From Rhizobiaceae bacterium (GTDB taxonomy: Bacteria > Pseudomonadota > Alphaproteobacteria > Rhizobiales > Rhizobiaceae), in NCBI GenBank assembly GCA_014380965.1, contig JACMIV010000162.1, positions 1 to 13,701 of the forward strand: a stretch of DNA of 13,701 bases, in the 5' to 3' direction. The notes below the pieces were generated by a model. It was not told where the DNA came from, ran no database searches, and saw only the letters and a list, made by a program, of their open reading frames with translations. Numbering within the stretch: position 1 is the stretch's first letter; every line of letters begins with the position of its first letter. Below, in pieces: positions 139 through 13,701 of this stretch. The position numbers and the translations under genes are program-made.

Positions 139-1335
139 TCAACCCTTCAGGTTGTCGACGACCGAGCGGCTGTGAAGAAGAGCCGCGGGGATGAGCGCGA
201 CGATGCCGCCGATCGCGACCAGCGAGAGCGAGAGCATCACCTCGGCTCCGCCGAGCGTCGCCGTCATCGCGATCCCGGTCTCACGGGCGATCACAGCCGA
301 CAGGATCTGCGCGACTCCGTAGCCGAGGCCGAGGCCGAGCGTAGAGCCGATGGCGATCATCGCCGTCACGCCTGTCCAGACGACGGCGAAAATGTACCAT
401 CTCGATGCCCCGAGCGCGCGGAGCACGGCGAAACGCTCGGCCTGGAGCTGGATGAGCGCCATGAGGCCGGCCAGGATGGCCGCGACGACGAGAATCTGCG
501 TCGTCAGCGTCAGGATGTCCATGACGGAACGCATGTCGCCGAGGACCGCGTAGAGCTGCACGAGAACCTCGGCCGGGAAGAAGGCGGTGGTCTCCTCCGT
601 CCGGTAGGCGCTCCTGAGGCCGTAGGCCGACGGCACCGTATCGGGCGAGAGGACGACAGCCGGAACCCCCGGCAGATGCGCCGCATCGAAGGGAGGACCG
701 ATCCGCGTTTCGCCCGGCGGATGGCCGGTCGGCAGGCCGTGGACGCGCCAGTTCTGTTCGACGGGCACGACGATGGCGGTGTCCCAAGGGGTTCCCGTGC
801 GCGCCATGCGGCCGACGACCGTCAGCCGCGTTTCGTGCTGCCCCTCGGCGGCAGCCCCATGGCCGTGGACCGGCCGGAGCGTCGCGCCGATCGCATAGGG
901 CGAGGCAGAGCCGACCACCGCCTCCGCCTCGGACTCAAAGACGCGTCCCTCCGCAAGGGGTCCGGAGAGCCTGTCGACGAAGGCCGCAGTCGTCCCGACG
1001 ATGGAGAATCCCGAGACCGAATCGCCGAAGGCGATGGGGGCGACAAGCGTCGCCTTCGGTTCCGCGAGGAGCTTCGCCACGGTCTCGGGGCGCAGGAGCT
1101 CGACCGCCGACGGCTGGAGATAGACGACGTTCATGAGGATGTCGGTCTGACTGCCGGGTGCGGCGACGATGAGATCAAAACGGTCGGCCGCGCGGGCGCT
1201 GCCCTGGCGAAGGGCGCGCTCCTGCGACGAGACCGCGACGCCGAGCGCGACGGCCAGCGCGACGAGCCCGATGAAGAGGAGCACCGTCGCGCGGTTGCGG
1301 TCGAACAGCGTCTTGACGATCGGAAACGGGTTCAC
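139..1335 (-). CDS. FtsX/MacB-like ABC transporter permease
   Basis: This 398-residue inner-membrane permease partners the ATPase encoded just upstream. It has the FtsX layout: one helix near residues 17-36, a large periplasmic domain to about residue 275, then three C-terminal helices (near 278-300, 312-345 and 365-388). The stretch RFAVLRALGASR after the second helix is a hallmark of the FtsX/LolC/MacB permease domain. The start codon is GTG at 1335-1333 and overlaps the ATPase stop codon as GTGA, implying translational coupling. Such systems usually move lipoproteins, peptides or small molecules out of the inner membrane, or transmit force across it, rather than import solutes. The substrate is unknown. 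The neighbouring CPFC protein suggests an envelope or metal-related role, which is inference. Confidence 0.9.
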   Translation of the reverse strand: MNPFPIVKTLFDRNRATVLLFIGLVALAVALGVAVSSQERALRQGSARAADRFDLIVAAPGSQTDILMNVVYLQPSAVELLRPETVAKLLAEPKATLVAPIAFGDSVSGFSIVGTTAAFVDRLSGPLAEGRVFESEAEAVVGSASPYAIGATLRPVHGHGAAAEGQHETRLTVVGRMARTGTPWDTAIVVPVEQNWRVHGLPTGHPPGETRIGPPFDAAHLPGVPAVVLSPDTVPSAYGLRSAYRTEETTAFFPAEVLVQLYAVLGDMRSVMDILTLTTQILVVAAILAGLMALIQLQAERFAVLRALGASRWYIFAVVWTGVTAMIAIGSTLGLGLGYGVAQILSAVIARETGIAMTATLGGAEVMLSLSLVAIGGIVALIPAALLHSRSVVDNLKG

Positions 1336-2036
1336 GGTCGCTGCCTCCGGTGCAGCCGGCCGTGATCGAGATCATGGACCACGTCGGCGACGGCGATGAG
1401 TTCGGGATCGTGGGTCACCGCCACCACCGTCCGCCCCTCGTCACGGGCGAGGCTCACCAGCAGCGCGCCGACCTCCCGGCCGGCTGCGCCGTCGAGACTT
1501 GCGGTCGGCTCGTCGGCGAGGATGATCGGTGGATCGAAGAGAAGCGCCCGAGCGATCGCCACGCGCTGCCGTTCGCCACGGGAGAAGCCTTTCAGGGTCT
1601 TGCGCCGGGTCGGCACGCCGAGCCGTGCCAGCAGCTCGTCCGCGCGCGGATAAAGCGCCTTCGCCGACAGACGATCGAACCACGCGGCACAGGCGACGTT
1701 CTGGCGCGGACTGAGCTCGTCGATGAGATGGAAGCTCTGGAAGATGAGGCCGATCGTGTCGCGCCGCCAGCGGTCGCGGCGCGTTTCGGACAGCGCGGAA
1801 ACGTTCGACCCGGCGAACGTCACCTGTCCGGCCTCGGGACGCACGAGCCCGGACAAGACGTTGAGAAGCGTCGACTTACCCGAGCCGGAGGGGCCGGTGA
1901 CGGCGACGAGCGCGCCGGGCACGGGAGCAAAAGACACGCCGTCGAGGACGGACACCATCGTCCCGCCGGAATCGGCATAGCGCACGACCAGTCCTTCGGC
2001 AGTCAGCACCCCTGCAGTCGGTTTTCGTCCGGTCAT
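1332..2036 (-). CDS. LolD/MacB-class ABC transporter ATP-binding protein
   Basis: This 234-residue cytoplasmic ATPase energises the FtsX-like permease. All nucleotide-binding motifs are visible: Walker A GPSGSGKST (48-56), Q-loop glutamine 100 in IFQSFHLIDELSP, Walker B IILADEP (171-177) and the switch histidine 209 in VTHD. The signature motif is FSRGERQ (151-157) instead of LSGGQ/LSGGEQ. Its GE is kept, but the Arg in place of the first Gly is unusual. Length and the FQ-FHL-L-P pattern fit the LolD/MacB/FtsE group rather than importers. The ATG overlaps the upstream stop codon as ATGA, and its own stop overlaps the permease start, so the three genes form one translationally coupled unit. 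Confidence 0.93.
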   Translation of the reverse strand: MTGRKPTAGVLTAEGLVVRYADSGGTMVSVLDGVSFAPVPGALVAVTGPSGSGKSTLLNVLSGLVRPEAGQVTFAGSNVSALSETRRDRWRRDTIGLIFQSFHLIDELSPRQNVACAAWFDRLSAKALYPRADELLARLGVPTRRKTLKGFSRGERQRVAIARALLFDPPIILADEPTASLDGAAGREVGALLVSLARDEGRTVVAVTHDPELIAVADVVHDLDHGRLHRRQRP

Positions 2037-2476
2037 CCGACCCTTTCGAAATCGGCATCCTGAAGCCGAACGCGGCTGACGAAGCCCATTTCAGGATCTT
2101 TCGTCGTGCCGAGCTCAAGTCTGCCGTTGACGCGGATGGGGAAGTTGAACGGAACGACGCTGATGAGGTCCTGCGTGTAGACGACGATGATGTCGCTCGG
2201 CCAATCGGCCTCGGTCTCGCAGAACGGACAGACCGACATCGGCATCCGCGTCAGCACGAAGAAGCGCGACTCGGCCTTCAGCGGCGGCGCCATGAAGCCG
2301 ACCATCTCGACGGATGCACCGTCGAGGGCCTTGGCGCGCTCGGAGAAGATCGTCTGGCGTTCGTAGAGGTCGCCGAACTCGATCGTATCCACTGCGGCGC
2401 CGGCAGAAACCGAGCTCATCGGACAGGTGGCGCCCGCGACGAGCGCCGAGATCAGAAAGCTGCGTCTGTCGAGCAT
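2033..2476 (-). CDS. Tat-exported small CPFC protein, DUF3299-like
   Basis: This 147-residue protein is predicted to be exported. It begins MLDRRSFLIS, a twin-arginine motif followed by a hydrophobic stretch to about residue 28 with an Ala-rich end. The mature part has the pattern of the DUF3299 family: a LDGASVEMVGFMAPP segment (51-65), a cysteine motif CPFC (83-86), then a beta-rich tail. CPFC could bind a metal such as zinc or act as a redox pair; the sequence does not decide. AAGGAAG about 5 bases before the ATG is a good ribosome site. The gene is first in a unit with the ATPase and permease (4-base overlaps). From memory, Pseudomonas aeruginosa has a comparable zinc-responsive cluster (PA4063-PA4066), which would make it an accessory to the transporter; that parallel needs checking. 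Confidence 0.75.
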   Translation of the reverse strand: MLDRRSFLISALVAGATCPMSSVSAGAAVDTIEFGDLYERQTIFSERAKALDGASVEMVGFMAPPLKAESRFFVLTRMPMSVCPFCETEADWPSDIIVVYTQDLISVVPFNFPIRVNGRLELGTTKDPEMGFVSRVRLQDADFERVG

Positions 2477-2590: not shown

Positions 2591-4138
2591 TTACTGCTTC
2601 TTGCCGAGGCCCGAAGCGTGGCTCAGCACATGGTAGATATAGTTCTCTTCCACGGTGCCGTGGAAGAGGTGGGCAAACGGGCCCCAGGCGTAGATAGCGA
2701 CGTCGTCGCCGGCGTGGGTCTCGCTGGCCATTGGAACGGTCGCGGGCTGGAGATAGTCGATGGTTGTGGTGTCGACATCGGTGAGATCGGGACGCACGCC
2801 GGCGGGCTGCGCCTTCGTCTTGTCCTCGTCCTTGCCGACCGGCGGGAAGTAGGCGCCCGGGCCGTTGGCATAGCTCAGCGTGGTGTAAGGCTTGCCGTCG
2901 CCGGCGAGTTCGACCTCGTCGTCGACGTTGACGACCGTGCCGAAGATCGGGTTGCCGCGCTTCGGATAACCGTTGATCGTCATCGTGTGGCTGTGATCGG
3001 CGGTGACGACCACGAGCGTGTCCTCGCGGTTTGTCTTCTCGAGCACGGCCTTCACCGCCGCGTCGAAGGCGAGCGTGTCCTCGAGAGCGCGCTGCGCGTT
3101 GCCGGCGTGATGGGCGTGGTCGATGCGTCCGCCCTCGATCATGAGGAGGTAGCCGGTCTCGTTCTGCGCCAGGCGGTCGATCGCCATGGTCGTCATCTCG
3201 GCGAGCGAGGGCTCGCCCGCGGCGTCCTTCGCGCGGTCGGCCTCATATTCCATGTGGCTCATGTCGAAGAGGCCGAGAACCTTGGCGCCCGAGGCGAGGT
3301 CTACGGCGTCGAAGCCGGCCTTGTCGAAGACGAAGACGTTGTTGTTGGACTTCGCCGTCCACTCGGCGGTGAGGTCGCGCGTGTCGGTGCGGCGGCCGGT
3401 CTTCTCGGTATCTTCCGGATCCTTCATCTCAGCGGGAAGGAAGTAGGCGCGTCCGCCGCCCATGGCGACCTCGAAGCCGTCGCCTTCGGGCCAGTTCACG
3501 AGCTGGTCGGCGATGTCCTTGCATCCGGCGGCCTTGCCCTCGGCCGAGATTTCCTTGTCGCTCTCCCAGTCGCGCACGGGCGTATGCGAATAGGTTGCGG
3601 CAGGGGTCGCGTGCGTGATGCGTGCGGTCGAAATGACGCCGGTCGCCTTGCCGGCGGCCTCCGCCATCGCGAAGATCGAGGTGACCTCGCCAGCCAGCGC
3701 GGCGGCGCAATCGCCGACCGCGACGGTCTGGTTGACGCCGAGAACGTCGTTGCGGGTCTTGACGCCCGTGACCATCGCGGTCGCCGTGGGCGCCGAGTCC
3801 GACACCTGGCCGTCATGCGAGTAGGTCTTCGACAAGGCGACGTATGGGAAAGTGTCAAGTGCCAGATTGTTCGATTCGCCGTCGACGCCGCGCTTCTGGC
3901 CGTCGAGAATGCGGGCGGCCGTGTTCGTCGCGATGCTCATGCCGTCGCCGACCATGATGATGACGTTCTTCGCTGCGCCGGTGATCTGCGGCGTCGCGAG
4001 GCGAGCCGCGAGATCGGCTTCGGCGGCTGTGAAGTAGCTGTCACCGGCCTGGGGGAGCGCATCCTGCGCAAGCGCCGGCTGACAGATGAAGAGAGCCAGC
4101 GAGGTGCCGGCGAGGAGCATCGTTGCGACGCGGCTCAT
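2591..4138 (-). CDS. phoA: Periplasmic alkaline phosphatase, animal-type PhoA family
   Basis: This 515-residue zinc/magnesium phosphomonoesterase releases phosphate from organic esters outside the inner membrane. A Sec signal peptide (hydrophobic to about 20, ALA-Q cleavage near 24-25) precedes the catalytic domain. Active-site motifs are complete: VGDGM (metal Asp65), SDSA with nucleophile Ser115, THATPA (His176), IEGGRIDHAHHAG (Glu335, Asp340, His341, His344), TADHSH (Asp381, His382) and ETHAGDDVAIYAWGP (His475). At the sites of E. coli Asp153 and Lys328 it carries His176 and His341, as animal enzymes do; flanking blocks also look animal-like. The start is fixed by CTGGAGGTC ahead of ATG. 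A Pho-box-like site lies about 70 bases upstream. The gene symbol is by family. Confidence 0.93.
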   Translation of the reverse strand: MSRVATMLLAGTSLALFICQPALAQDALPQAGDSYFTAAEADLAARLATPQITGAAKNVIIMVGDGMSIATNTAARILDGQKRGVDGESNNLALDTFPYVALSKTYSHDGQVSDSAPTATAMVTGVKTRNDVLGVNQTVAVGDCAAALAGEVTSIFAMAEAAGKATGVISTARITHATPAATYSHTPVRDWESDKEISAEGKAAGCKDIADQLVNWPEGDGFEVAMGGGRAYFLPAEMKDPEDTEKTGRRTDTRDLTAEWTAKSNNNVFVFDKAGFDAVDLASGAKVLGLFDMSHMEYEADRAKDAAGEPSLAEMTTMAIDRLAQNETGYLLMIEGGRIDHAHHAGNAQRALEDTLAFDAAVKAVLEKTNREDTLVVVTADHSHTMTINGYPKRGNPIFGTVVNVDDEVELAGDGKPYTTLSYANGPGAYFPPVGKDEDKTKAQPAGVRPDLTDVDTTTIDYLQPATVPMASETHAGDDVAIYAWGPFAHLFHGTVEENYIYHVLSHASGLGKKQ

Positions 4139-4306: not shown

Positions 4307-4789
4307 TCAGTGTGCGTGCCCCGCATGGCTATGCTGCATGGCATCTCTCGCCTCGATCTCGACATGGACGAGAACGTCGCCCGCCTTCTCGAACGACAAC
4401 GTCATCTCCACTTCAGTCCCGATGCCAAGCGGCTGGCGAAGTCCGCGCAACTCGAGCGCCAGCCCGCCGGGGTCGAGCTCGAATGCCCCGGGCGGCACGT
4501 CCACCGGTCCAATCGGGCTCGTTGAGATCTCGCCAACGGCGTTCGTCAGGCCGACGATTAGGACGCTGCCCGCCACCAGGGTTGCTGCTCCCGTCAGACG
4601 ATCCGCCTCGCCCGCGTTAGCGATTTCCAGGAATACGAGCGTGTCTTCCCCGGCATCGGCCGCCCGGGCCCAGGCATGGACGATCGTCAAACTGCCCACG
4701 GAGGTTGCGTGAGCGTCGTTTTCGGCGAGTGCGCGACCTCCGACGATGAGAAGCGCAATTGCGCCGAGGGCTGCGTTGGTCCTAAACAT
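4307..4789 (-). CDS. Secreted PCuAC-fold protein lacking copper ligands, His-rich tail
   Basis: This 160-residue exported protein has the PCuAC (DUF461) periplasmic metallochaperone fold. A Sec signal peptide (MFRTNAALGAIALLIVGGRALA) is followed by family blocks: VHAWARA, TLVFLEIANAG, ADRLTGAATLVAG, VPPGAFELDPGGLAL and LRGLRQPL, then a terminal TLSFEKAG strand. Copper-binding PCuAC proteins have His-Glu, Met and His-x-Met ligands after these strands. Here the matching stretches read VLIVGLTNAV and LALEL, so no ligand remains. The end is instead QHSHAGHAH, with four histidines. The ATG at 4789-4787 is preferred over in-frame starts upstream because GAAAGG precedes it and the signal peptide begins there. 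A Zur-like palindrome lies 24-38 bases upstream. It probably binds another metal, perhaps zinc, but that is inference. Confidence 0.8.
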   Translation of the reverse strand: MFRTNAALGAIALLIVGGRALAENDAHATSVGSLTIVHAWARAADAGEDTLVFLEIANAGEADRLTGAATLVAGSVLIVGLTNAVGEISTSPIGPVDVPPGAFELDPGGLALELRGLRQPLGIGTEVEMTLSFEKAGDVLVHVEIEARDAMQHSHAGHAH

Positions 4790-4812: not shown

Positions 4813-4827
4813 TGTTAGAACGTAACA
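4813..4827. promoter_or_regulatory. Zur/Fur-family-like palindromic operator
   Basis: TGTTAGAACGTAACA is a perfect 5-bp inverted repeat (TGTTA/TAACA) with a 5-base centre. This is exactly the arm sequence and spacing of the bacterial Zur core TGTTATANTATAACA; the central bases differ. It lies 24-38 bases before the start of the PCuAC-like gene, where a repressor would block transcription. The flanks do not extend the symmetry, so the match is to the core only. A MarR- or other Fur-family site is possible. Confidence 0.5.
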
Positions 4828-4903
4828 TCAGTGGATGGCGTTCGTGTGACCACGCGCAGCCACCCATTTCACCCGGCACCCAAAGCCGGCCTAAAGCGCA
4901 CGA

Positions 4904-5112
4904 AAGCTCACCACCGTCCGGCACCGGACCATACGGACAAAAGATGGGCTGTCGCACAAGACCGCGCGGCTGATGGTCTTCAAGCTCATCATGGCCGCCG
5001 CCAGGACCTGGCGCAGGCTAAAGGGCCAAAACTGCTTGCCGATGGTCATCGCCGACGTCAATTCACCGACGGCATCGCTGTCAACACCGACGCCAATCAA
5101 CGCGCCGCCTGA
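4904..5112 (+). pseudogene. IS256-family transposase C-terminal fossil, frameshifted
   Basis: Translating from 4913 gives TVRHRTIRTKDGLSHKTARL followed by MVFKLIMAAARTWRRLKGQN, a C-terminal block characteristic of IS256-family (Mutator-type) transposases. The frame is lost near 5060, where one A appears missing from GTCAA(A)TTC. Reading on in the next frame gives FTDGIAVNTDANQRAA and a TGA stop at 5110-5112, the expected family ending. Upstream, GAAAGC at 4902-4907 may be the remains of the NPIEST motif, and weak similarity continues back to about 4865. The N-terminal catalytic part is absent, so this is a dead remnant. It abuts the promoter of the PCuAC-like gene. The family call is from recalled sequence patterns. 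Confidence 0.65.
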
Positions 5113-5144
5113 TCGGCCCCGTCACCCAAATTCCACCGTAGCTC

Positions 5145-5276
5145 AAAGTCGCCACGCGCCACGACAAAGCCGCCAGGTCCTTCTTGGCCTTCCTCTGCCT
5201 CGCCAAATCACGCATCTGGCTCAAGGACTTTGTCAGCAGAGCCGAGCACAGTAGGATCGATTGTGTCAGCATGTGA
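5145..5276 (+). pseudogene. IS5-family transposase C-terminal fossil
   Basis: An open stretch of 43 codons ending in TGA reads KVATRHDKAARSFLAFLCLA then KSRIWLKDFVSRA and a short tail. The pattern R(R/K)VATR-DK-AR-(F/Y)LA..-LA...IWL is the usual C-terminus of IS5-group DDE transposases. Nothing upstream supplies the catalytic domain, and the preceding bases belong to the end of the IS256-type remnant, so this piece is a truncated leftover. Two different IS ends side by side suggest a past insertion and deletion hot spot. Confidence 0.5.
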
Positions 5277-5466
5277 ATGGGCACCAACTTGAACACTGAA
5301 CCGCCTCGGTCGGGCCGATGGCGGACTGTCGGCTTGCAGGTAGCCGGTCCTCAAAAGCCGCCGCCGCGGTCCAGGCCAAAAGGTTACCGTAATGGTCCTT
5401 CCGTGCCCATCATCATGGCATCCCTGCAGAATTCCTAATAGTTGCTCGTTGCGTTGCTGCCAACAC
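5277..5466. other. Gap with no recognisable gene
   Basis: This stretch joins the IS fossils to the 3' end of the GGDEF/EAL gene. No reading frame here resembles a known protein, and no terminator-like hairpin with a T run was found. It may contain further degraded IS sequence. Confidence 0.5.
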
Positions 5467-7521
5467 TCAAGAGGTCGAGCTCTTTTTCCCGTTCTGGAGA
5501 AAGACGATCTCGGATAGCGCCGAAGGCCGACCGACATAGTAGCCCTGCACCTGATGCAGCCCCGCCGATTGCGCGAACTTTAGCTGATCCGCAGTCTCGA
5601 TGCCCTCGACGAGGATCCTGGGGCCGCAGTTGCGCACCAGGGTGATGATGTCCAGAAGCATCAAGCGCCCCTTCGGTTCATTGATGCCGTGCAGGAATGA
5701 CTTGTCGATCTTGACCGTGTCGAACTCGATCATCCGCAGCCACGAAAGTCCCGCGAATCCGGTGCCGAAGTCGTCCAGCCAGATGCGGACGCCGAGCCTC
5801 TTCAGATCAGCGATGCAATTTAGCACGACCAAGTCCATGTCGATCTCGAGACCTTCGGTGATCTCGAGGGCCAGACGGCTCCCCATCACTCCGGTCTCCA
5901 TCAATATGGATGCGACCGCCGCGGCAAAACCTGGGTTGCGAAGCTGCACGGCAGACACGTTGACACTCGCGACCGGAACCAACCCGGTCGCGAGTGCGTC
6001 CCTGCAGACGGTACAAATCGCCCAGGTACCGAGCGTCACGATCGCACCCATGCGTTCGGCGACCGGGATGAACATGGAGGGAGGAACGGACGTGCCATCA
6101 ACCGACCTCAGGCGCATTAGGGTTTCAACTGCCTCGAGTCGACCGGACTCGACTCCGTGGATCGGCTGATAGACCAGCGAGACCAGTCCGCGTTCCACCG
6201 CGATTTTGAGCAGCGCGGCCACCGTCTCGTTCATGTCGTCGTTGTTTGGATCCTTCGGATCGAAGAGCTTCACGCAGTTCCGCCCGTCCGATTTCGCGGC
6301 ATAGAGCGCGCGGTCGGCCTCATGGACGATCCGCTCCAGGTTCGTCGTGGAGTCACTCCGCGTATACGACACGCCGACGCTGACGGTGACGACGGAATGA
6401 CCGTCCCGCCTCAGTCCGTGCTCGATGCCGAGCTGTTCGACGGTCCGGCGGACCGTCTCGGCGAGGCTTTCGGCGGCCGCACTGGTCTGAACAGGCGCCA
6501 GGATGATGAACTCCTCACCGCCATAGCGGCCGACGAGACCGTCGGCGCATTTGGCGACCGACGCCAAGGAGTTGGCGACCTCCACTAGACATCTGTCGCC
6601 CTGCTGGTGGCCGTGCCGATCGTTGAAGTTCTTGAAGAAGTCGACGTCGACTAGGATGGCAGCGAAGCTACGGCGCTCCGTCTGCCACCTGCTCCAGAAC
6701 TCGTGCAGTTTCACGTCTACGGAACGCCTGTTGTGAACGTTGGTCAGCGCGTCCGTGTAGGAGAGCTTCAGCAGCGCCTGGCCGTGGGCCTGCGTCTCCT
6801 CCTGGTGCAGGTTCGCCTTGTAGCTGTTCAGGAACGCACGGTAGCGCTCGTTCTCCAGCTTCATCGCGACGTAGGAGGTGAAGAAGAAGCACGAGAAGTA
6901 GAACGATCCGAAGATGAGGGATTGGACCGTTCCTCCCTGTCCAGAAAGGAGGATCGTCGCGGACAGCGTTAACAGGATGGACAGGCACGTCGTCAGTGCC
7001 ACGGCGGCGCGGAAAGCGAAGAACAGGTTCGCGCCGATCATGAACACGGCACCGTAGATCCGGTAGTATTCTCCGACGCTCTGTTCGATCGTGAACGACG
7101 CCGGTACGATCCAACCAAGGAAACCGAGGACGATGCCGCTCGCACAGACGAGGTCGAGGACGTCGGCCCCGGCATTCGTGCGGAACTGCCACTCCATCAT
7201 CGCCAGCGACAGGATCGCGACGGCGAAACGAGCGGCGATCGTATAGGCGGCCACGTCCGGCACGACAAAGACATCGAGGGCGGAAAACATGATGTAGACC
7301 ACGATTGCGGCCGCGCAGCCCGCCCGTGCAGTTTTCCTCCGATCGGCCTCCCGTGCTTTCCAGAAGCTTTGCCGGAGGCCACGATCCGAAGGTGCCCAAT
7401 ACGGCTTCCTCAGCTCCGCCTCGATCGCATCGACCCGTTTCTGCGTCATGCCGGCATCCAGAGTTGACCCGGCGGCGGCAGCAGGCCGCCATATCCAGAG
7501 GTAAAATCGCGACTTTACCAT
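5467..7521 (-). CDS. Membrane GGDEF-EAL cyclic-di-GMP turnover enzyme
   Basis: This 684-residue protein has about six predicted membrane helices (residues 68-220), then a GGDEF domain (about 252-420) and an EAL domain (about 432-675). The GGDEF half makes cyclic-di-GMP and keeps GRYGGEEF (GGEEF 334-338). The usual RxxD inhibitory site should fall at 325-328, which here reads CADG, so that feedback site is lacking. The EAL half degrades cyclic-di-GMP. Its key residues are present: ETLMR (466-470, ETL for EAL), Asn521, EITE (553-556), DDFGTG (583-588), KIDK (604-607) and EGIET (639-643). Both activities therefore look possible. The membrane part probably senses a signal and is not a domain I can name. 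The first ATG has a weak ribosome site; Met25 (7449) is a plausible alternative start. It is divergent from the methyltransferase gene. Confidence 0.92.
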   Translation of the reverse strand: MVKSRFYLWIWRPAAAAGSTLDAGMTQKRVDAIEAELRKPYWAPSDRGLRQSFWKAREADRRKTARAGCAAAIVVYIMFSALDVFVVPDVAAYTIAARFAVAILSLAMMEWQFRTNAGADVLDLVCASGIVLGFLGWIVPASFTIEQSVGEYYRIYGAVFMIGANLFFAFRAAVALTTCLSILLTLSATILLSGQGGTVQSLIFGSFYFSCFFFTSYVAMKLENERYRAFLNSYKANLHQEETQAHGQALLKLSYTDALTNVHNRRSVDVKLHEFWSRWQTERRSFAAILVDVDFFKNFNDRHGHQQGDRCLVEVANSLASVAKCADGLVGRYGGEEFIILAPVQTSAAAESLAETVRRTVEQLGIEHGLRRDGHSVVTVSVGVSYTRSDSTTNLERIVHEADRALYAAKSDGRNCVKLFDPKDPNNDDMNETVAALLKIAVERGLVSLVYQPIHGVESGRLEAVETLMRLRSVDGTSVPPSMFIPVAERMGAIVTLGTWAICTVCRDALATGLVPVASVNVSAVQLRNPGFAAAVASILMETGVMGSRLALEITEGLEIDMDLVVLNCIADLKRLGVRIWLDDFGTGFAGLSWLRMIEFDTVKIDKSFLHGINEPKGRLMLLDIITLVRNCGPRILVEGIETADQLKFAQSAGLHQVQGYYVGRPSALSEIVFLQNGKKSSTS

Positions 7522-7710
7522 CTCTACAGCCGGGAAACGAAAATTCCGTTATGCGGAATGGTTGACTTTTGGTCAGATCACTTCGCGTCCGAACTATGAG
7601 CTATGGCCGTTAACCAAGATTTTAATCGTTTGTCGCAGAGCAACGAAAGGAAAAGGACAACGTCAATTTCGTCGGCTACCTTTAATCAGCCTTTAACTAA
7701 TGGAGCCGCG
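7522..7710. promoter_or_regulatory. Divergent intergenic region
   Basis: This AT-richer stretch must hold the promoters of the minus-strand GGDEF/EAL gene and the plus-strand methyltransferase gene. TTGACT at about 7562-7567 could be a -35 hexamer reading right, and TGACTTTTGGTCA around it is a small inverted repeat (TGAC/GTCA). No convincing -10 at the right distance was found. The sequence stays open in the methyltransferase frame from 7603, so part of it might be translated. Confidence 0.35.
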
Positions 7711-8754
7711 ATGTCCCTCCTACATGCAATATTGGACGGCGAGAGTCTCATCACGCCGGATCTCCTATCGCGGCAGCTGCGCCCCGTCGTATCGCGCAAC
7801 GACGAACATCGTCTCGCGATCGCCGGCGATCAGCTCACGCTTGCGCTGGGTATCGCACGGCAGAGGTTCGAGTCCGGCAGCGCCGCGGCCCGCGTCGTTG
7901 AGGATCTGTCGAGGCATCTTCACGAAATCCGCTCGAACTGTGACGCAGGCATCTGGTCAATCCTAGTCGCGAAGGCGCAGCAGCACCCGGTGAGGGAACA
8001 CCTTTTTCAGGATCCTTTCACCCGGTGGTCGTTCGACAAGCCTCGCGGCTATTCCGGCGACGCTCATCTTCTCGATTTCATTTACGGTTGCGAGGCCGTT
8101 GCTTCGTCCGTTGAAGACAGCACGCCGCTGGGCCGCGAGATCTACGCCTACACGAGAAACGCGTCGTCCTCGGTCGCGGTCCGCGAGCGTCGCGATCTGC
8201 TTGCCCATCACGTGGACCGGCTGCATGCCGAAAAGGGTTCCAGCCTCGAAGTGCTGACGATCGCCGCCGGACATCTGCGGGAGGCGGAACGTTCGTCCGC
8301 CCTGGCGGAGGGCGGGATCTCGCGCTGGACGGCGATCGACCAGGATCCCGCCAGCGTCGAAGAAATTCGACGGACCTACGCGGAAACACCGGTCGAGCCG
8401 ATCGAGGGATCGGTCAAGGGCATCCTGTCCAACGCCTACCAGCTCGGACATTTCGACTTCGCTTACGCTGCTGGTCTCTACGACTATCTGCCGAGGGCGG
8501 TGGCGGTGAAGCTGACGCGGAAAGCGATGGAGCTCCTGAAGCCGCGAGGCGTCTATCTCTTCGCCAACTTCGCCCAAGGGATCGCTGTCGATGGCTACAT
8601 GGAGACCTTCATGAACTGGGAGCTCCTACTGCGCTCAGAAGCCGAGATGTGGGACATCATCAACGCGAGCGTCGACCGCAACATGGTCGATGCCACAGTC
8701 GAACCCGGCGAGAACGGAAACATCCTGTACGGTATCATTCGAATGAGGACGTGA
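7711..8754 (+). CDS. Class I SAM-dependent methyltransferase, PhcB-like family
   Basis: This 347-residue cytoplasmic methyltransferase belongs to a proteobacterial family often annotated as making 3-hydroxypalmitic acid methyl ester, the Ralstonia PhcB signal. Recognisable blocks are HLFQDPFTRWSFDKPRGYSG (the family N-terminal signature), LTIAAGHLREAE (SAM-binding motif I, normally ACGHLREAE; Cys is Ala here), AIDQDP (acidic loop after strand 2), FDFAYAAGLYDYL (motif IV) and ANFAQG...GYMETFMNWELL. The frame stays open to an ATG at 7603, giving 383 residues. The ATG at 7711 is preferred because GGAG stands 5 bases before it, while 7603 has no clear ribosome site. The true substrate is unknown; a fatty-acid methyl ester is only a family-based guess. 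It is divergent from a cyclic-di-GMP enzyme, suggesting a signalling locus. Confidence 0.8.
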   Translation: MSLLHAILDGESLITPDLLSRQLRPVVSRNDEHRLAIAGDQLTLALGIARQRFESGSAAARVVEDLSRHLHEIRSNCDAGIWSILVAKAQQHPVREHLFQDPFTRWSFDKPRGYSGDAHLLDFIYGCEAVASSVEDSTPLGREIYAYTRNASSSVAVRERRDLLAHHVDRLHAEKGSSLEVLTIAAGHLREAERSSALAEGGISRWTAIDQDPASVEEIRRTYAETPVEPIEGSVKGILSNAYQLGHFDFAYAAGLYDYLPRAVAVKLTRKAMELLKPRGVYLFANFAQGIAVDGYMETFMNWELLLRSEAEMWDIINASVDRNMVDATVEPGENGNILYGIIRMRT

Positions 8755-9382: not shown

Positions 9383-9940
9383 TTATCCATACTGAATCCT
9401 CCGCCCCTCGACCGGCACGCTGGCGCCATCTGTTGGAAAGGCGCCGAGATAGTCCAGTTTGCCAAGAGGGACGCGGTTGGTGCGGAGGATCGCGTAGGCG
9501 GTCGTGACGTGGAAGTAAAAATTTGGCAGTGCGAACTGCCGAAGATAGTCCGGCCCTCGATAGGAGACGCTGCGGCTGCCGTGCTGGATCGTGACGATGC
9601 GGCTTGACGACGCCTCGACCTCCAGAGGGTCGATGATTTCGAGAAAGCGTAGCGTCTTGTCGATACGAGCCTGAAGCTCGGGAAAGCTCGTCTCCGTGTC
9701 CAGAAAGCTCGGGGGAATCATGCCGGCGAGGCGAGCGCCGGCGAACTTGGCCGTATCCGTCGCCATCTGCACCTGTCGGACGAAGTTGTGCATGTCTGGC
9801 GCGAGCCGGGCCTCCAGAAGCGTCGCCGGATCGAGGCGGCTCGCTTGCGCGTAGGTCACTGCGGTGTCGAGCATGGCCGACAACGTGGTCAACATCCGCG
9901 TCATGACGCCGATCGAGGTGGAGTGGATGGAAATCGGCAT
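9383..9940 (-). CDS. DUF1993 family protein
   Basis: This 185-residue soluble protein starts MPISIHSTSIGVMTRML, and its whole length matches the DUF1993 pattern: a helical N-terminus, ARLAPDMHNFVRQVQMATDTAK near 45-67, a middle block with FPELQARIDKTLRFLE, and FALPNFYFHVTTAYAILRTN near 140-159. The family is helical and DinB-like, and no enzyme activity is established. The start is fixed by a perfect AGGAGG six bases before ATG, although the frame stays open further upstream. Its probable promoter lies about 250 bases away and carries two palindromes like those at the tetR/efflux promoter, so it seems to belong to the same TetR regulon. There is no export signal, so a cytoplasmic location is likely. 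The link with drug efflux suggests a stress or detoxification role, as inference. Confidence 0.88.
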   Translation of the reverse strand: MPISIHSTSIGVMTRMLTTLSAMLDTAVTYAQASRLDPATLLEARLAPDMHNFVRQVQMATDTAKFAGARLAGMIPPSFLDTETSFPELQARIDKTLRFLEIIDPLEVEASSSRIVTIQHGSRSVSYRGPDYLRQFALPNFYFHVTTAYAILRTNRVPLGKLDYLGAFPTDGASVPVEGRRIQYG

Positions 9941-10192
9941 GAGAGCCTCCTGTCGGGAAGTTACTTTCGGGCGAGCGATGCATTTTCGCGTCCGGTCGCC
10001 GGATGCAGATTTGGACAACACGATGTGCGATGGCGTCGAAGACCGTCCCGCAGTCCCACGTTGGAAGACCTGTCTGCGGGGAGGACGGTGCGGCTCGAGA
10101 CGAATGCCGGCCATGGGTTGCAGCGGGAGGACTACCGAGGAAAAAGCCGCGCAGGCGGGGCTCCTATCCCCAAACACCCACAAAACCTTTAT

Positions 10193-10206
10193 ATACCGCT
10201 TGGTAT
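10193..10206. promoter_or_regulatory. TetR operator-like palindrome at the DUF1993 promoter
   Basis: ATACCGCTTGGTAT has perfect 5-bp arms (ATACC/GGTAT). It lies one base beyond the proposed -10 hexamer of the DUF1993 promoter, over the expected transcription start. The arms match those of the palindromes between tetR and the efflux genes, which suggests the same repressor binds here. Confidence 0.55.
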
Positions 10207-10207
10207 C

Positions 10208-10237
10208 AATATGGCCGGCACCGGCCTGGCCTGTCAA
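10208..10237 (-). promoter_or_regulatory. Probable DUF1993 promoter
   Basis: On the minus strand TTGACA (10237-10232) is followed after 18 bases by CATATT (10213-10208). The -35 is a perfect consensus and sits in the context GGTTGACA, also found at the efflux promoter. Operator-like palindromes flank it on both sides. If it is used, the mRNA has a leader of about 260 bases before the DUF1993 start. Confidence 0.55.
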
Positions 10238-10267: not shown

Positions 10268-10849
10268 TCAGCCGGGAAACGCCTTCATCGTCATGCTGAC
10301 GACCTTGCGCAGCGCGTCACGGCTTGCACCCGCCACAGCCTGCACTGCCATGCCTTGCGACACCGTCATGATGTAGCGGGCGAGATCCGCGGGATCGCTC
10401 TCGGGCGATAGGTCGCCCTCGTCGCGCGCTTTCGCGAAGCGCTCGCAGAGCGTCCGCTCGCCGAACTTGCGCTTCTCGATCACGGCCTTTTGCACTTCAG
10501 CGGCGGCATCGCTGCAAGCCATGGCGGCATTGATGCCCATGCAGCCGCCGGGATTGCAGGTTGCGGTCAGCGCGTCGACATAGCCGTTCATCATCTTTTC
10601 GACGACTTCGCGCGCGGTCGGCTCGCCCATGGCGTCACGGAAAAAGCCCATGTACCCCTGTTCATAGCGTTCTAGCGCCTTGCGGAAGAGCTCCTCCTTG
10701 TTACCGAAAGTGCCGTAGAGGCTCGGTCGGGTAATGCCCATCCCATCCGTAAGGTCGGTCAGCGACGTGCCCTCGTAGCCCTTGCGCCAGAACAGCTCCA
10801 TCGCGGCCTGAAGGGCCTCATCGATGTCGAACTCGCGGGGGCGTCCCAT
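10268..10849 (-). CDS. TetR/AcrR-family transcriptional repressor
   Basis: This 193-residue one-component repressor has a TetR DNA-binding domain at residues 1-55: the opening GRPREFDIDEALQAAMELFW, then GYEGTSLTDLTDGMGITRPSLYGTFGNKEELF, with the recognition helix in ITRPSLYGTF. The C-terminal ligand and dimer domain has TCNPGGCMGINAAMACSD (about 96-113), a Cys-bearing block seen in one common TetR subgroup. The start is supported by CAGGAG about 10 bases before ATG. It is divergent from a MexE/MexF-type efflux operon, the usual arrangement for a local repressor. Palindromes at 10892-10911 and 10955-10966 in the shared region, and two more by the DUF1993 promoter, are its likely operators. The inducing ligand cannot be told from sequence. 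Confidence 0.92.
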   Translation of the reverse strand: MGRPREFDIDEALQAAMELFWRKGYEGTSLTDLTDGMGITRPSLYGTFGNKEELFRKALERYEQGYMGFFRDAMGEPTAREVVEKMMNGYVDALTATCNPGGCMGINAAMACSDAAAEVQKAVIEKRKFGERTLCERFAKARDEGDLSPESDPADLARYIMTVSQGMAVQAVAGASRDALRKVVSMTMKAFPG

Positions 10850-10891
10850 TGCCTTGGTCTCCTGTGCGGCCTGGAAGCCGGAAAAAAGAAA

Positions 10892-10911
10892 AATACTGAC
10901 CGGTCGGTATT
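10892..10911. promoter_or_regulatory. Probable TetR operator between tetR and the efflux genes
   Basis: AATACTGACCGGTCGGTATT is a 20-base palindrome with one mismatched pair (CTG against CGG). It is placed 43-62 bases before the tetR start and immediately upstream of the -35 hexamer of the efflux promoter, where one bound repressor could affect both directions. It shares ACCGGTCGGTA / ACCGATCGGTA with the site at 10955-10966. Confidence 0.7.
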
Positions 10912-10916
10912 AAAGG

Positions 10917-10945
10917 TTGACACCGGCCGCCAACCGCTCTTATTT
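10917..10945 (+). promoter_or_regulatory. Probable promoter of the efflux operon
   Basis: TTGACA at 10917-10922 is a perfect -35 hexamer. Seventeen bases later is TTATTT (10940-10945), a weak -10; TATTTC is an alternative. Palindromic operators lie directly upstream (10892-10911) and downstream (10955-10966), an arrangement suited to repression by the divergent TetR protein. Confidence 0.5.
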
Positions 10946-10954
10946 CGTCAGTTA

Positions 10955-10966
10955 TACCGATCGGTA
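10955..10966. promoter_or_regulatory. Probable TetR operator at the efflux transcription start
   Basis: TACCGATCGGTA is a perfect 12-base palindrome about 10 bases past the proposed -10 hexamer. It is about 100 bases before the adaptor gene start, so it would cover the transcription start of the efflux operon. Confidence 0.65.
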
Positions 10967-11067
10967 GGAAACGTCAACTGAGCAATCGGTAACCCACCGC
11001 CGCTTCTCCGGGCCGCTTCTCCGACCCTGACTGACAATTCCGACACTTCTTCGCAAGGATGCCCGCC

Positions 11068-12297
11068 ATGACCCGTCGCACCCTCTTCCGGACGTTCCTC
11101 CTCGGTGGTGTCGTCCTCACCGCCGCCACTTTCGGAGGGCCTGCCCTCTTCCAGCTGCATGGCGCGCTCGATACGGGCAGCGTGCCGGCCGTCGCCGCTG
11201 CACCCGCTCCGGCGATGCCAGTTTCGGTCGCGCTGGTGAAGGCAGAGCCCGTCACCCGGTGGAACGCCTTTTCCGGCCGGCTCGAAGCCGTCGAACATGT
11301 CGAGCTGCGCTCGCGCGTCGCCGGCGCCATCGAAGCGGTCCATTTCGACGAGGGCGCCGTCGTGCAGAAGGGCGATCTCCTCGTCACGATCGACCGCGCG
11401 CCCTACGAGGCTGAGGTCGCCCGCGCCAAGGCCAGCGTGACGGCGGCGGAGTCGCGCGTCGCCTTCGCCCGCAACGAGCTTGACCGCGGCAAGAAGCTGG
11501 TGGAATCGCGCACGGTCTCCCAAAGCGACTACGACCAGCGCATCAACACCGAACTCGGCGCCGTCGCAGATGTAGAGGCTGCCAAGGCCGTGCTGCGCAC
11601 CGCCGAGCTGAACCTCGGCTATACCGAGATCCGCGCGCCGATCTCCGGCCGGGTCGGACGGATCGAGATCACCGCCGGCAACCTCATCGAGGCCGGCCCG
11701 TCTTCGCCCGTCCTGACGCGGCTCGTCTCGCTCTCGCCGATCTATGCAAGCTTCGAGGCGGACGAGGACGTCGTTGCCGCGGCGCTGTCCGAACTGCCGA
11801 AGGGCCCGAATGCCCGGAGCCATGTCGGCGATATCCCGGTGCGGATGGATGCCGCCGGACGGACGGACGTCACGGGCCGGCTGCAACTGATCGACAACGC
11901 GGTGGATGTGTCGAGCGGCACGGTGCGCGTGCGCGCCAGCTTCGACAATGAGGACGGCAGCCTGATGCCCGGCCAGTTCGCAAGGCTTCACATGGGCCGG
12001 CCGAAGCCCGAAGAGGCACTGCTCGTCTCCGAGCGGGCGGTCGGCACCGACCAGGACAAGAAGTACGTCTTCGTCGTCGGCGCAGACAACAAAGCGGAGT
12101 ATCGCGAAGTCGCCCTCGGCGAGCGCGCCGACGGGCTGCGAATCGTCACCTCGGGTCTCAGGCCCGACGAGCGCGTCGTCGTCAACGGCGTCCAGAGGGT
12201 GCGGCCGGGTGCGGTCGTCGCGCCGGAGCTCGTCGACATGAAGGCACAGCCGGCCGCCGAGATGCAGGTATCGGAAGCGGACGTGCCGAAGGGCTGA
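11068..12297 (+). CDS. RND efflux periplasmic adaptor, MexE/OqxA-like
   Basis: This 409-residue membrane-fusion protein links an inner-membrane RND pump to an outer-membrane channel. An N-terminal hydrophobic segment (about 8-28, with no lipobox cysteine) anchors or exports it. Next come the first lipoyl half VELRSRVAGAIEAVHFDEGA, a coiled-coil alpha-hairpin (about 112-175, rich in Ala/Glu/Arg), the second lipoyl half LGYTEIRAPISGRVGRIEIT, and the beta-barrel and membrane-proximal domains ending near GVQRVRPGAVV. The spacing and these blocks fit the MexE/OqxA subgroup. The ATG at 11068 is preferred to the one at 11059 because AAGGA lies 8 bases before it. The pump gene follows after 115 bases, so the two form an operon, probably repressed by the divergent TetR protein. 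No outer-membrane channel gene is visible in the window. Confidence 0.92.
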   Translation: MTRRTLFRTFLLGGVVLTAATFGGPALFQLHGALDTGSVPAVAAAPAPAMPVSVALVKAEPVTRWNAFSGRLEAVEHVELRSRVAGAIEAVHFDEGAVVQKGDLLVTIDRAPYEAEVARAKASVTAAESRVAFARNELDRGKKLVESRTVSQSDYDQRINTELGAVADVEAAKAVLRTAELNLGYTEIRAPISGRVGRIEITAGNLIEAGPSSPVLTRLVSLSPIYASFEADEDVVAAALSELPKGPNARSHVGDIPVRMDAAGRTDVTGRLQLIDNAVDVSSGTVRVRASFDNEDGSLMPGQFARLHMGRPKPEEALLVSERAVGTDQDKKYVFVVGADNKAEYREVALGERADGLRIVTSGLRPDERVVVNGVQRVRPGAVVAPELVDMKAQPAAEMQVSEADVPKG

Positions 12298-12412
12298 CGC
12301 CCGCTTCTCGCGAACGCTTCGTCGACCCCGGGGCTCGCCACCCGGAGGACGTCTTCCCCCTCGCGGCAGCTCATCGAGCTCGCCCCAGCCCATCGAAAGA
12401 CGGAGCGTTCCC

Positions 12413-13701
12413 ATGAACATCTCCAACTTCTTCATCGACCGCCCCGTCTTCGCGGGCGTCTTGTCCTTCATGATCTTCATCGGCGGCCTGATCGCCATGA
12501 CGGTGTTGCCGATCTCGGAATATCCCGACGTCGTGCCGCCCTCGGTCGTGGTGCGCGCCAACTATCCCGGCGCCAATCCTAAAGTGATCGCCGAGACGGT
12601 CGCGACACCGATCGAAGAGGCAATCAACGGCGTCGAGGACATGCTCTACATGTCGAGCCAGGCGACGACGGACGGGCTGATGACGCTGACCGTGACGTTC
12701 GCGCTCGGCACCGATCCCGACCAGGCTCAGCAGCTCGTGCAGAACCGCGTCTCCCAGGCCGAGCCGCGGCTGCCGGAAGAGGTGCGCCGCCTCGGCATCA
12801 CGACGATCAAGAGCTCGCCCGACCTGATGATGGTCGTCCACCTAACCTCGCCGGGCGGACGCTACGACATCAACTACCTTCGCAACTACGCCCTCATCAA
12901 CGTCAAAGACCGGCTGGCGCGCATCGACGGCGTCGGGCAGGTGCAGCTCTTTGGCGCGGGTGACTATTCGATGCGCATCTGGCTCGACCCGCAGAAGACC
13001 GCCGAGCTCGGCCTTTCCGCCGGCGACATCGTCAACGAGATCCGCGCGCAGAACGTCCAGGCCGCGGCCGGCGTCATTGGCTCCTCGCCGGGCCTTGCCG
13101 ACGTCGACCTGCAGCTTTCGGTGAATGCGCAAGGGCGGCTCGCGACCGAGGAGGAGTTCGGCGACATCATCGTCAAGACCTCGCCGACCGGCGCCATCAC
13201 GCGTCTGCGCGACGTCGCGCGGATCGAGCTTGGTGCCGCCGAATACGCGCTGCGCTCCCTGCTCGACAACCGGCAGGCCGTCGCCGTGCCGGTCTTCCAG
13301 GCCCCCGGCTCCAACGCCATCGAGATCGCCGACAAGGTGCGCGCGACGATGGAGGAGGCGAAGGCCGCAATGCCGGAGGACGTCACCTACGAGATCGTCT
13401 ACGACACGACGCAGTTCGTGCGCGCCTCGATCGAGGCCGTCGTGCACACGCTGCTCGAAGCGATCCTCCTCGTCGTCTTCGTGGTCATCCTCTTCCTCCA
13501 GACCTGGCGGGCGTCGATCATCCCGCTCATCGCCGTGCCCGTCTCGATCGTCGGCACCTTCGCGGTGATGCAGATGTTCGGCTTCTCGATCAACGCGCTG
13601 TCGCTCTTCGGCCTCGTGCTCGCCATCGGCATCGTCGTCGACGACGCGATCGTCGTCGTCGAGAATGTCGAGCGCAACATCGAGCACGGCCTCAACCCGC
13701 G
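12413..13701 (+). CDS. RND multidrug efflux pump, MexF/OqxB-like (3' end outside window)
   Basis: This is the first 429 codons of an inner-membrane drug/proton antiporter of the HAE1 RND family; full members run to about 1,050 residues. It begins MNISNFFIDRPVFAGVLSFM, the usual first helix. The periplasmic porter domain follows, with PGANPKVIAETVATPIEEAI, GVEDMLYMSSQATTDG and TIKSSPDLMMVVHL, all typical of MexF/OqxB. Helices from about residue 340 include FQAPGSNAIE before the membrane and the proton-relay motif GIVVDDAIVVVENVERN with both aspartates. GGAG stands 8 bases before the ATG. Only the window edge truncates it; no frameshift is seen. Substrates of relatives include chloramphenicol, quinolones and trimethoprim, but here they cannot be inferred. 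Confidence 0.93.
   Translation, partial: MNISNFFIDRPVFAGVLSFMIFIGGLIAMTVLPISEYPDVVPPSVVVRANYPGANPKVIAETVATPIEEAINGVEDMLYMSSQATTDGLMTLTVTFALGTDPDQAQQLVQNRVSQAEPRLPEEVRRLGITTIKSSPDLMMVVHLTSPGGRYDINYLRNYALINVKDRLARIDGVGQVQLFGAGDYSMRIWLDPQKTAELGLSAGDIVNEIRAQNVQAAAGVIGSSPGLADVDLQLSVNAQGRLATEEEFGDIIVKTSPTGAITRLRDVARIELGAAEYALRSLLDNRQAVAVPVFQAPGSNAIEIADKVRATMEEAKAAMPEDVTYEIVYDTTQFVRASIEAVVHTLLEAILLVVFVVILFLQTWRASIIPLIAVPVSIVGTFAVMQMFGFSINALSLFGLVLAIGIVVDDAIVVVENVERNIEHGLNP

What the first reader, a model, noticed from the sequence alone, without database searches (positions are those of the whole stretch)
4307..4789. PCuAC-like protein with all copper ligands replaced and a His-rich tail
The fold signature of the PCuAC copper chaperone is clear. 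At the positions of the His, Met and His-x-Met ligands, however, the protein has Val/Gly, Ser and Leu-x-Leu. A QHSHAGHAH tail offers new metal ligands. With a Zur-like site at its start and a zinc enzyme gene next to it, this could be a chaperone re-purposed for zinc, possibly for the phosphatase.
Basis: partly seen in the sequence, partly recalled or inferred. Interest (0 to 1): 0.7.

Follow-up and report, generated by a model that had tools for sequence, protein, structure and literature searches.

The report
Copper-chaperone relative inside a zinc-type operon
A small periplasmic protein related to copper chaperones has lost its copper-holding residues but carries conserved histidines, and it sits in a recurring gene set with a zinc-type transporter and the zinc enzyme alkaline phosphatase, so it probably carries zinc; this is inferred from sequence and has not been tested.

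Summary
The protein at 4307-4789 (-) is a PCuAC-domain protein without the four Cu(I) ligands: V79, T90, A111 and E113 stand there (not Ser and Leu-x-Leu as first read). Of 47 variant rows (45 distinct), 0 keep the Cu(I) motif; H38 and four tail histidines are in 47. They form one branch apart from canonical PCuACs (100/99). The gene heads an operon with PhoA, a small CPFC protein distantly linked to DUF3299, a MacB-like ATPase and an FtsX permease. ATPase plus permease are at 36 of 40 variant loci and 0 of 23 canonical loci. In 41 of 43 ZrgA-bearing genomes the permease's long match lies beside a zrgA match, the Zur-regulated zinc system of Vibrio and Pseudomonas. Zur-like and PhoB-like sites are enriched before these operons, though the window's own Zur-like site is weak against a published matrix. 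Best reading: a PCuAC-fold periplasmic metal (probably zinc) carrier in ZrgA's place in a Zrg-like system, usually with PhoA. Zinc binding, transport direction and delivery to PhoA are untested; copper(II) remains the main rival.

The parts
4307..4789 (-). PCuAC-variant gene, 160 aa: signal peptide (about 1-22), PCuAC beta-sandwich, His tail
   Evidence: PF04314 57.1 bits; AlphaFold2 model from 46 rows, mean pLDDT 87.7, strands between 28 and 146; variant side of one branch, 100/99
4310..4336 (-). C-terminal tail QHSHAGHAH (residues 152-160)
   Evidence: H153, H155, H158, H160 in 47 of 47 variant rows; all four His in 7 of 8 profile-only members
4709..4711 (-). codon of H27, aligned with the first His of PmoF1 chains
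   Evidence: 44 of 47, 3 gaps
4676..4678 (-). codon of H38 in the HxW motif
   Evidence: 47 of 47
4451..4555 (-). stretch holding the four lost Cu(I) ligand positions V79, T90, A111, E113
4813..4827 (.). Zur-like palindrome TGTTAGAACGTAACA, 23 nt upstream of the start codon
   Evidence: weak with the published Paracoccus matrix
2591..4138 (-). phoA, alkaline phosphatase with an N-terminal leader
   Evidence: PF00245 437.4 bits; five active-site motifs, patterns written from memory, present
2033..2476 (-). 147-aa protein with a twin-arginine-like start and CPFC (P147), linked to DUF3299 through an intermediate
   Evidence: C83 and C86 invariant in 34 rows
1332..2036 (-). MacB/LolD-type ABC ATPase
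139..1335 (-). FtsX-type permease: one N-terminal hydrophobic peak, about 240-residue loop, then C-terminal hydrophobic peaks
   Evidence: PF02687 28.9 bits, cut-off 25.5

Best explanation
A periplasmic Zn(II) (or other divalent-metal) carrier built on the PCuAC fold. Shown: the Cu(I) site is absent throughout the clade; H27, H38 and a four-His tail are conserved; the gene recurs with a Zrg-type MacB-like ABC pair, usually with a DUF3299-linked CPFC protein and PhoA; Zur-like and PhoB-like sites are enriched before the operons. Inferred: when zinc (and/or phosphate) runs short the operon is switched on; the carrier picks up zinc with the flexible tail and the H27/H38 pair and hands it on, through the ABC machine and/or the CPFC protein, either towards import or to periplasmic clients, of which PhoA (a zinc enzyme) is the obvious one. 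In the operon it holds the place that ZrgA/PA4063 holds in Zrg systems.
For: 0 of 47 variant rows keep the Cu(I) motif against 31 of 31 canonical. One branch separates 50 variant from 33 canonical rows, 100/99. ATPase+FtsX at 36 of 40 variant loci, all four partners at 30 of 40; at 23 canonical loci none passes the same thresholds. In 41 of the 43 genomes with ZrgA over the cut-off the window permease has a long match (80% or more of its length) within about 5 kb of a ZrgA match (14 of 14, 27 of 29; in G075 and G220 it lies beside a second, partial ZrgA match); G216 and G122 have no match, and G067 has a second, stronger long match elsewhere. ZrgA is required for normal growth in zinc-deficient conditions in a delta-znuA V. 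cholerae (PMC9820375, passages). The P147 profile finds an ORF at E 7.5e-7 that is DUF3299 (8.3e-9, over cut-off) beside a related ABC pair and a Fur-family protein in L166. Zur-like core in 19 of 45 operon promoters against 9 of 217 background (1 of 400 scrambled patterns reaches as many operon hits); Pho-box-like in 26 of 45 against 16 of 217 (0 of 400). With a matrix from published Paracoccus Zur sites, 16 of 47 operon promoters exceed the 95th percentile of background, p=2.9e-7. L015, L024 and L034, which lack the ABC pair, have Zur-like sites and a CPFC protein directly behind the carrier gene.
Against: No metal-binding datum. His/Met tails of PCuACs bind Cu(II) in Bradyrhizobium and Neisseria proteins, and methanotroph PCuACs lack the primary motif (PMC13006917, passages) yet bind copper with a histidine brace (PMC8424229, PMC10952591, passages). 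The window's own Zur-like site is weak by the published matrix and is not the best-scoring stretch in the window. The related PA4063-PA4066 system has been argued to export a pyochelin-cobalt complex (PMC11481552, passages). L036 has CueR/CopA-like genes nearby (read by eye). P147 with ABC genes occurs without a detected PCuAC variant, some on short contigs (L156-L162). L040 has neither partners nor a detected CPFC protein. The promoters come from related loci, so p-values overstate.
Confidence: 0.6

Rival explanations
1. A dedicated zinc-loading line for PhoA: the carrier and the ABC machine exist to put zinc into periplasmic alkaline phosphatase, under joint Zur and PhoB control.
For: PhoA at 30 of 40 variant loci; Pho-box-like sites before 18 of 27 PhoA-first operons, 14 of the 18 at 32-78 nt from the start, with a Zur-like site further upstream in seven of those promoters (L018, L022, L026, L033, L044, L046, L049); PhoA is a zinc enzyme (established knowledge).
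Against: PhoA was not found at 10 of 40 variant loci, 8 of them not cut by a contig end; L156 and L158 have PhoA, P147, ATPase and permease without a detected carrier; Pho-box-like sites also stand before 8 of 18 operons or runs that do not start with phoA; co-regulation alone would explain the linkage.
Confidence: 0.3
2. A copper(II) carrier: the Cu(I) site is lost but H27/H38 and the tail bind Cu(II), as in PmoF1 and in tails of known PCuACs.
For: H27 and H38 align with His residues of PmoF1, and each of the two columns is His in 27 of 31 canonical PCuACs; tails bind Cu(II) in known PCuACs; L036 neighbourhood.
Against: A histidine brace uses the N-terminal amine. In canonical rows the His of that column follows an Ala in 26 of 27 (AxA in 18 of 27), as at a signal-peptide cut; in the variants H27 lies further in (cleavage inferred). 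Tails average 0.19 Met against 1.74. Transporter and promoter context points to zinc.
Confidence: 0.2
3. Part of a cobalt or metallophore handling system, as argued for PA4063-PA4066.
For: Homology of the ABC pair to Zrg-type transporters and the published argument.
Against: None of its partners here points to a metallophore; I noticed no such genes by eye in partial flanks of six loci but made no search for them.
Confidence: 0.1
4. A structural adaptor that binds no metal and couples the ABC machine to its partners.
For: The Cu(I) site is lost.
Against: Of the nine residues invariant over 49 rows, five are His and one is Trp, hard to explain without metal binding, though tail-pattern selection contributes.
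Confidence: 0.07

Closest known systems
PCuAC copper chaperones (PF04314; solved relatives DR1885, TTHA1943; PcuC and AccA in papers)
   Same: Domain, predicted periplasmic, C-terminal His-containing tail in many
   Different: None of the four Cu(I) ligands; different operon; tail His nearly without Met
PmoF1-type methanotroph PCuAC (6p16, 6p17, 6p1e) and the entries 6p1f, 6p1g
   Same: Best single-sequence PDB matches; methanotroph PCuACs lack the primary motif; His at the positions of H27 and H38
   Different: PmoF1 uses its N-terminal His in a copper brace; here that His is probably internal; tail and operon differ
ZrgABCDE of Vibrio / PA4063-PA4066 of Pseudomonas
   Same: Homologous MacB-like ATPase and FtsX permease; a His-rich periplasmic protein; a DUF3299 or DUF3299-linked protein; Zur control known there, Zur-like sites here
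   Different: The His-rich protein is PCuAC-fold instead of ZrgA (PF10986); PhoA is added; P147 is only distantly linked to DUF3299; 2 of 37 variant genomes also hold a ZrgA over the cut-off
AztD and ZinT periplasmic zinc chaperones
   Same: Zinc-starvation-induced periplasmic zinc chaperone (AztD: PMC5387054, part 1 of the RNA-Seq section read; ZinT recalled)
   Different: Unrelated folds and a cluster A-I zinc ABC importer as partner (folds recalled)

Membership tests
PCuAC domain family (PF04314) | Domain match over the curated cut-off | tested here: met
   57.1 bits against 29.4
PCuAC copper(I) chaperones | H-x(n)-M-x(21/22)-H-x-M Cu(I) site | tested here: not met
   absent in the window; 0 of 47 variant rows, 31 of 31 canonical rows
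PCuAC copper(I) chaperones | Cu(I) binding and delivery to a copper enzyme | not testable with these tools
   needs protein
PmoF1-type histidine-brace PCuAC | Mature chain starts with His | tested here: inconclusive
   H27 is residue 5 after the likely cut at AxA 20-22; the cut is read by eye, no signal-peptide program was run
Zrg-type system | ZrgBC-type ATPase and permease | tested here: met
   Long permease match beside a ZrgA match in 41 of 43 genomes; ATPase 36-45% and permease 24-32% identical in aligned stretches
Zrg-type system | ZrgA (PF10986) periplasmic protein | tested here: not met
   No PF10986 match in the held 2.57 Mb of this genome, which is 66% complete; PCuAC variant in the operon instead
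Zrg-type system | DUF3299 (ZrgE/PA4066) protein | tested here: inconclusive
   Window P147: no Pfam match at 0.01; 1 of 30 relatives at E 0.063; profile-profile probability 66%, 22% and 2.6% by set-up; no PDB match by profile; linked through an intermediate that is DUF3299
Zrg-type system | Zur control | tested here: inconclusive
   Zur-like sites enriched across the family; the window site is weak by the published matrix; no binding test

The most novel reading that the evidence does not exclude
A copper chaperone fold was converted into the zinc carrier of a Zrg-like mechanotransmission ABC machine and combined with PhoA under joint zinc (Zur) and phosphate (PhoB) control: a dedicated periplasmic zinc-supply device for alkaline phosphatase, a genetic counterpart of zinc-phosphorus co-limitation.
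Probability: 0.25. Interest if true: 0.85.

Novelty: new variant of a known kind. Interest (0 to 1): 0.6.

Why it matters
It would show a copper-chaperone fold re-tooled for another metal by losing one site and keeping or adding histidines, and would give the disputed Zrg/PA4063-PA4066 family (import or export?) a new branch with a likely client enzyme, PhoA. It makes testable whether bacteria supply zinc to periplasmic alkaline phosphatase on purpose. The subfamily is sporadic (13 of 198 genomes of one family have a match over 90 bits) but spread over Hyphomicrobiales, Rhodobacteraceae-type families, Rhodospirillales and one gammaproteobacterial bin (L043). I found no paper describing it in the searches, which cover an open-licence library only.

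Tried and rejected
Considered and rejected: (a) ligands present but shifted: no. (b) Ordinary PCuAC in its usual place: the genome has a separate canonical copy and the operon differs. (c) Strict exclusion between ZrgA and the variant: 2 of 37 variant genomes hold ZrgA over the cut-off against 43 of 299 in a phylum sample, too little to claim exclusion. (d) P147 as a plain DUF3299 member: not shown directly. (e) Obligate carrier-transporter pairing: not so, L156-L162 hold P147 with ABC genes and some PhoA without a detected variant. (f) Promoter and terminator scan: nothing clearly above chance. (g) The first genome-contig scan, with the single sequence, found nothing.

Weaknesses: bit-score thresholds were set after seeing the data. 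The 45 loci were found by two patterns, one in the tail; L041, L042, L048, L050 and L051 were dropped before counting 40. One search was first run on 14 ZrgA genomes from which I had left out G075 and G216, whose fetched ZrgA regions showed no ABC match; one search added the other 29 over-cut-off genomes, giving 41 of 43. The Pho-box and first Zur consensus were recalled; one search trained its matrix on sites from these loci (leave-one-out), searches used consensus patterns, one search used published sites only. One search leaves out L014 as a near-copy of L013; searches do not. Duplicates among the 47 rows: L003/L009 and L010/L068; L109 is the locus of L010. Gene starts in fetched loci were set by script. 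PhoA motif patterns, from memory, matched 10 to 37 of 37 operon PhoAs, so I claim them only for the window.

Full report
What is there. The gene at 4789-4307 (minus strand) encodes a 160-residue protein with a PCuAC domain (PF04314, 57.1 bits, cut-off 29.4). The held genome is a 2.57 Mb, 66% complete assembly with a second PCuAC copy on another contig, which has the canonical ligands (L001). Downstream on the same strand follow phoA (4138-2591, PF00245 437.4 bits), a 147-residue protein with a twin-arginine-like start (2476-2033, no Pfam match at 0.01), an ABC ATPase (2036-1332; best NCBIfam matches MacB and LolD, none of the 25 shown over its cut-off) and an FtsX permease (1335-139). The last three overlap by four bases each; gaps of 168 and 114 bases lie on either side of phoA (sequence).

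Ligands. The comparison set is 31 canonical PCuACs: 27 from a sample of the window's family, the own-genome copy, and L041, L042 and L048. Their Cu(I) columns are H, M, H, M in 31 of 31. In 47 variant rows (45 distinct) the first column is V, I or M, the second mostly Y, T or W, the third A, G or Y, the fourth mostly R, E or K; the whole motif is in 0 of 47. The window has V79, T90, A111 and E113. H38 and W40 are in 47 of 47 and H27 in 44 with 3 gaps. The H27 and H38 columns are each His in 27 of 31 canonical rows, so the pair is not new to the variants. In canonical rows the His of the H27 column follows Ala in 26 of 27, AxA in 18 of 27, as at a signal-peptide cut; in the window it is the fifth residue after the likely cut at AxA 20-22. 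Cleavage is inferred. The best single-sequence matches in the PDB are 6p1g, 6p1f and PmoF1, whose chains start at or near a His aligned with H27 and carry His at H38. PmoF1 is described as a histidine-brace copper site using the N-terminal His (PMC10952591 and PMC8424229, passages). The primary paper was not held, so I could not check that its second ligand is the His aligned with H38. In the predicted structure strands 28-31 and 34-42 flank a two-residue gap, which would set H27 opposite H38 if they form a hairpin; this is inference from secondary structure only.

Tail. H153, H155, H158 and H160 are in 47 of 47 rows. Because one of the two search patterns lay in the tail, I searched by profile in 198 genomes of the family of Salipiger aestuarii. 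Thirteen have a match over 90 bits, of which five were known loci. The eight new ones were read (L191, L192, L194, L196-L200): all four tail His in 7 of 8, H38 in 7, H27 in 6; L199 is the outlier. L197, L198 and L200 end in HPHAGHNH, which the tail pattern would have missed. In the 47 rows, 16 have five or more His up to the H27 column, against at most three in canonical rows.

One clade, one neighbourhood. A tree of 83 rows splits 50 variant from 33 canonical rows by one branch, 100/99. Of 45 loci I dropped four canonical or odd ones (L041, L042, L048, L050) and a truncated one (L051). Of the 40 left, ATPase and FtsX are at 36, P147 at 31, PhoA at 30, all four at 30. Of 23 canonical loci (20 of about 16 kb from the window's family plus L041, L042, L048), none passes the same thresholds for any of the four; weaker generic ATPase hits do occur. 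Four plasmid loci and two same-family loci also have all four. In two Ensifer adhaerens plasmids the operon lies just behind an arsenic-resistance cluster. Of the four variant loci without the ABC pair, L015, L024 and L034 have a CPFC protein directly behind the carrier gene, L040 none by my pattern. In the other direction, P147 with ABC genes, with or without PhoA, occurs without a detected variant (L156-L162; L159 and L161 are short contigs).

Transporter type. ZrgA (PF10986) was found in 50 of 299 phylum genomes at E up to 0.001, 43 over cut-off. The window permease was searched in all 43: first in 14, from which I had left out G075 and G216 because their fetched ZrgA regions showed no ABC match, then in the other 29. 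In 41 of 43 a long match (80% or more of the permease) lies within about 5 kb of a ZrgA match; in G075 and G220 that is a second, partial ZrgA match. G216 and G122 have none. Only G067 has a long match elsewhere, which scores higher and which I did not examine; other extra matches are short or weak (E 1e-5 to 1e-3). ATPases are 36 to 45% and permeases 24 to 32% identical in the stretches aligned. The permease shows one N-terminal hydrophobic peak, a loop of about 240 residues and C-terminal peaks, like the four-helix layout with a large periplasmic domain described for ZrgB (PMC9820375, passages) and MacB-type PA4064/PA4065 (PMC11481552, passages). P147 (C83 and C86 invariant) is linked to DUF3299 through an intermediate: its profile finds an ORF in L149/L166 at E 7.5e-7 that Pfam calls DUF3299 at 8.3e-9, near a related ABC pair and a Fur-family protein (PF01475, 3.5e-12). 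Direct tests are weak. PA4066 is described as similar to the OB fold (PMC8561739, passage); the P147 model is beta-rich, but I could not compare the folds.

Promoters. With a consensus taken from memory, 19 of 45 operon promoters hold the Zur-like core with up to two mismatches against 9 of 217 background promoters of the same loci; 1 of 400 scrambled patterns has as many operon hits. Pho-box-like sites (recalled consensus) are in 26 of 45 against 16 of 217; 0 of 400 scrambles. With a matrix from five Paracoccus denitrificans sites, part of a set tested by gel shift (PMC5387054, part 1 of the section read), 16 of 47 exceed the 95th and 11 of 47 the 99th percentile of background (p 2.9e-7 and 4.7e-7). 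The sequences are related, so these values overstate. The window's own site is a perfect palindrome but scores only 10.4 by that matrix, below the 90th percentile (10.84), and another stretch of the window (9359) scores 12.6; the znuA intergenic site of the same genome scores 17.1. Six of the nine promoters at loci without PhoA (L015, L023, L024, L034, L036, L052) have the Zur-like core. Pho-box-like sites stand before 18 of 27 PhoA-first operons and 8 of 18 others.

What it most likely does. The evidence supports a periplasmic carrier that lacks the Cu(I) site and works with a Zrg-like machine under zinc-linked control; zinc is the likeliest cargo. That it binds zinc, which way metal moves, and whether PhoA is the client are inferences. 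The strongest rival on the cargo is Cu(II), because PCuAC tails bind Cu(II) (PMC13006917, passages). The function of the Zrg family itself is disputed: zinc acquisition in Vibrio against export of a pyochelin-cobalt complex in P. aeruginosa.

Verdict. New variant of a known kind; interest 0.6.

Noticed in passing
window 5467-7521 (-): GGDEF plus EAL protein.
   Followed up: no
window 7603-8754 (+): Protein with a Methyltransf_25 match just over its cut-off (27.7 bits, cut-off 27).
   Followed up: no
window 10268-13701: TetR regulator divergent from a HlyD/RND-type membrane fusion protein; what follows runs off the window.
   Followed up: no
window about 9383-10237 (-): DUF1993 protein (180.7 bits); the ORF start is unclear.
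   Followed up: no
window about 4831-5300: Short overlapping frames upstream of the operon that look by eye like a decayed transposase; not tested.
   Followed up: no
L006 and L007 (Ensifer adhaerens plasmids): The operon lies directly downstream of an arsenic-resistance cluster.
   Followed up: partly
L166:5956-9363: DUF3299 protein with CPFC, FtsX permease, ATPase and a Fur-family regulator close together in a 1.5 Mb genome.
   Followed up: partly
L156-L162: P147 with Zrg-like ABC genes, some with PhoA, but no detected PCuAC variant.
   Followed up: partly
G067:C1:2019337-2020542: A second, stronger relative of the window permease far from zrgA.
   Followed up: no
L051 / L205: PCuAC variant lacking its N-terminal part.
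   Followed up: no
L036:9383-12240: CueR-like and CopA-like genes downstream of a PCuAC variant (read by eye).
   Followed up: no
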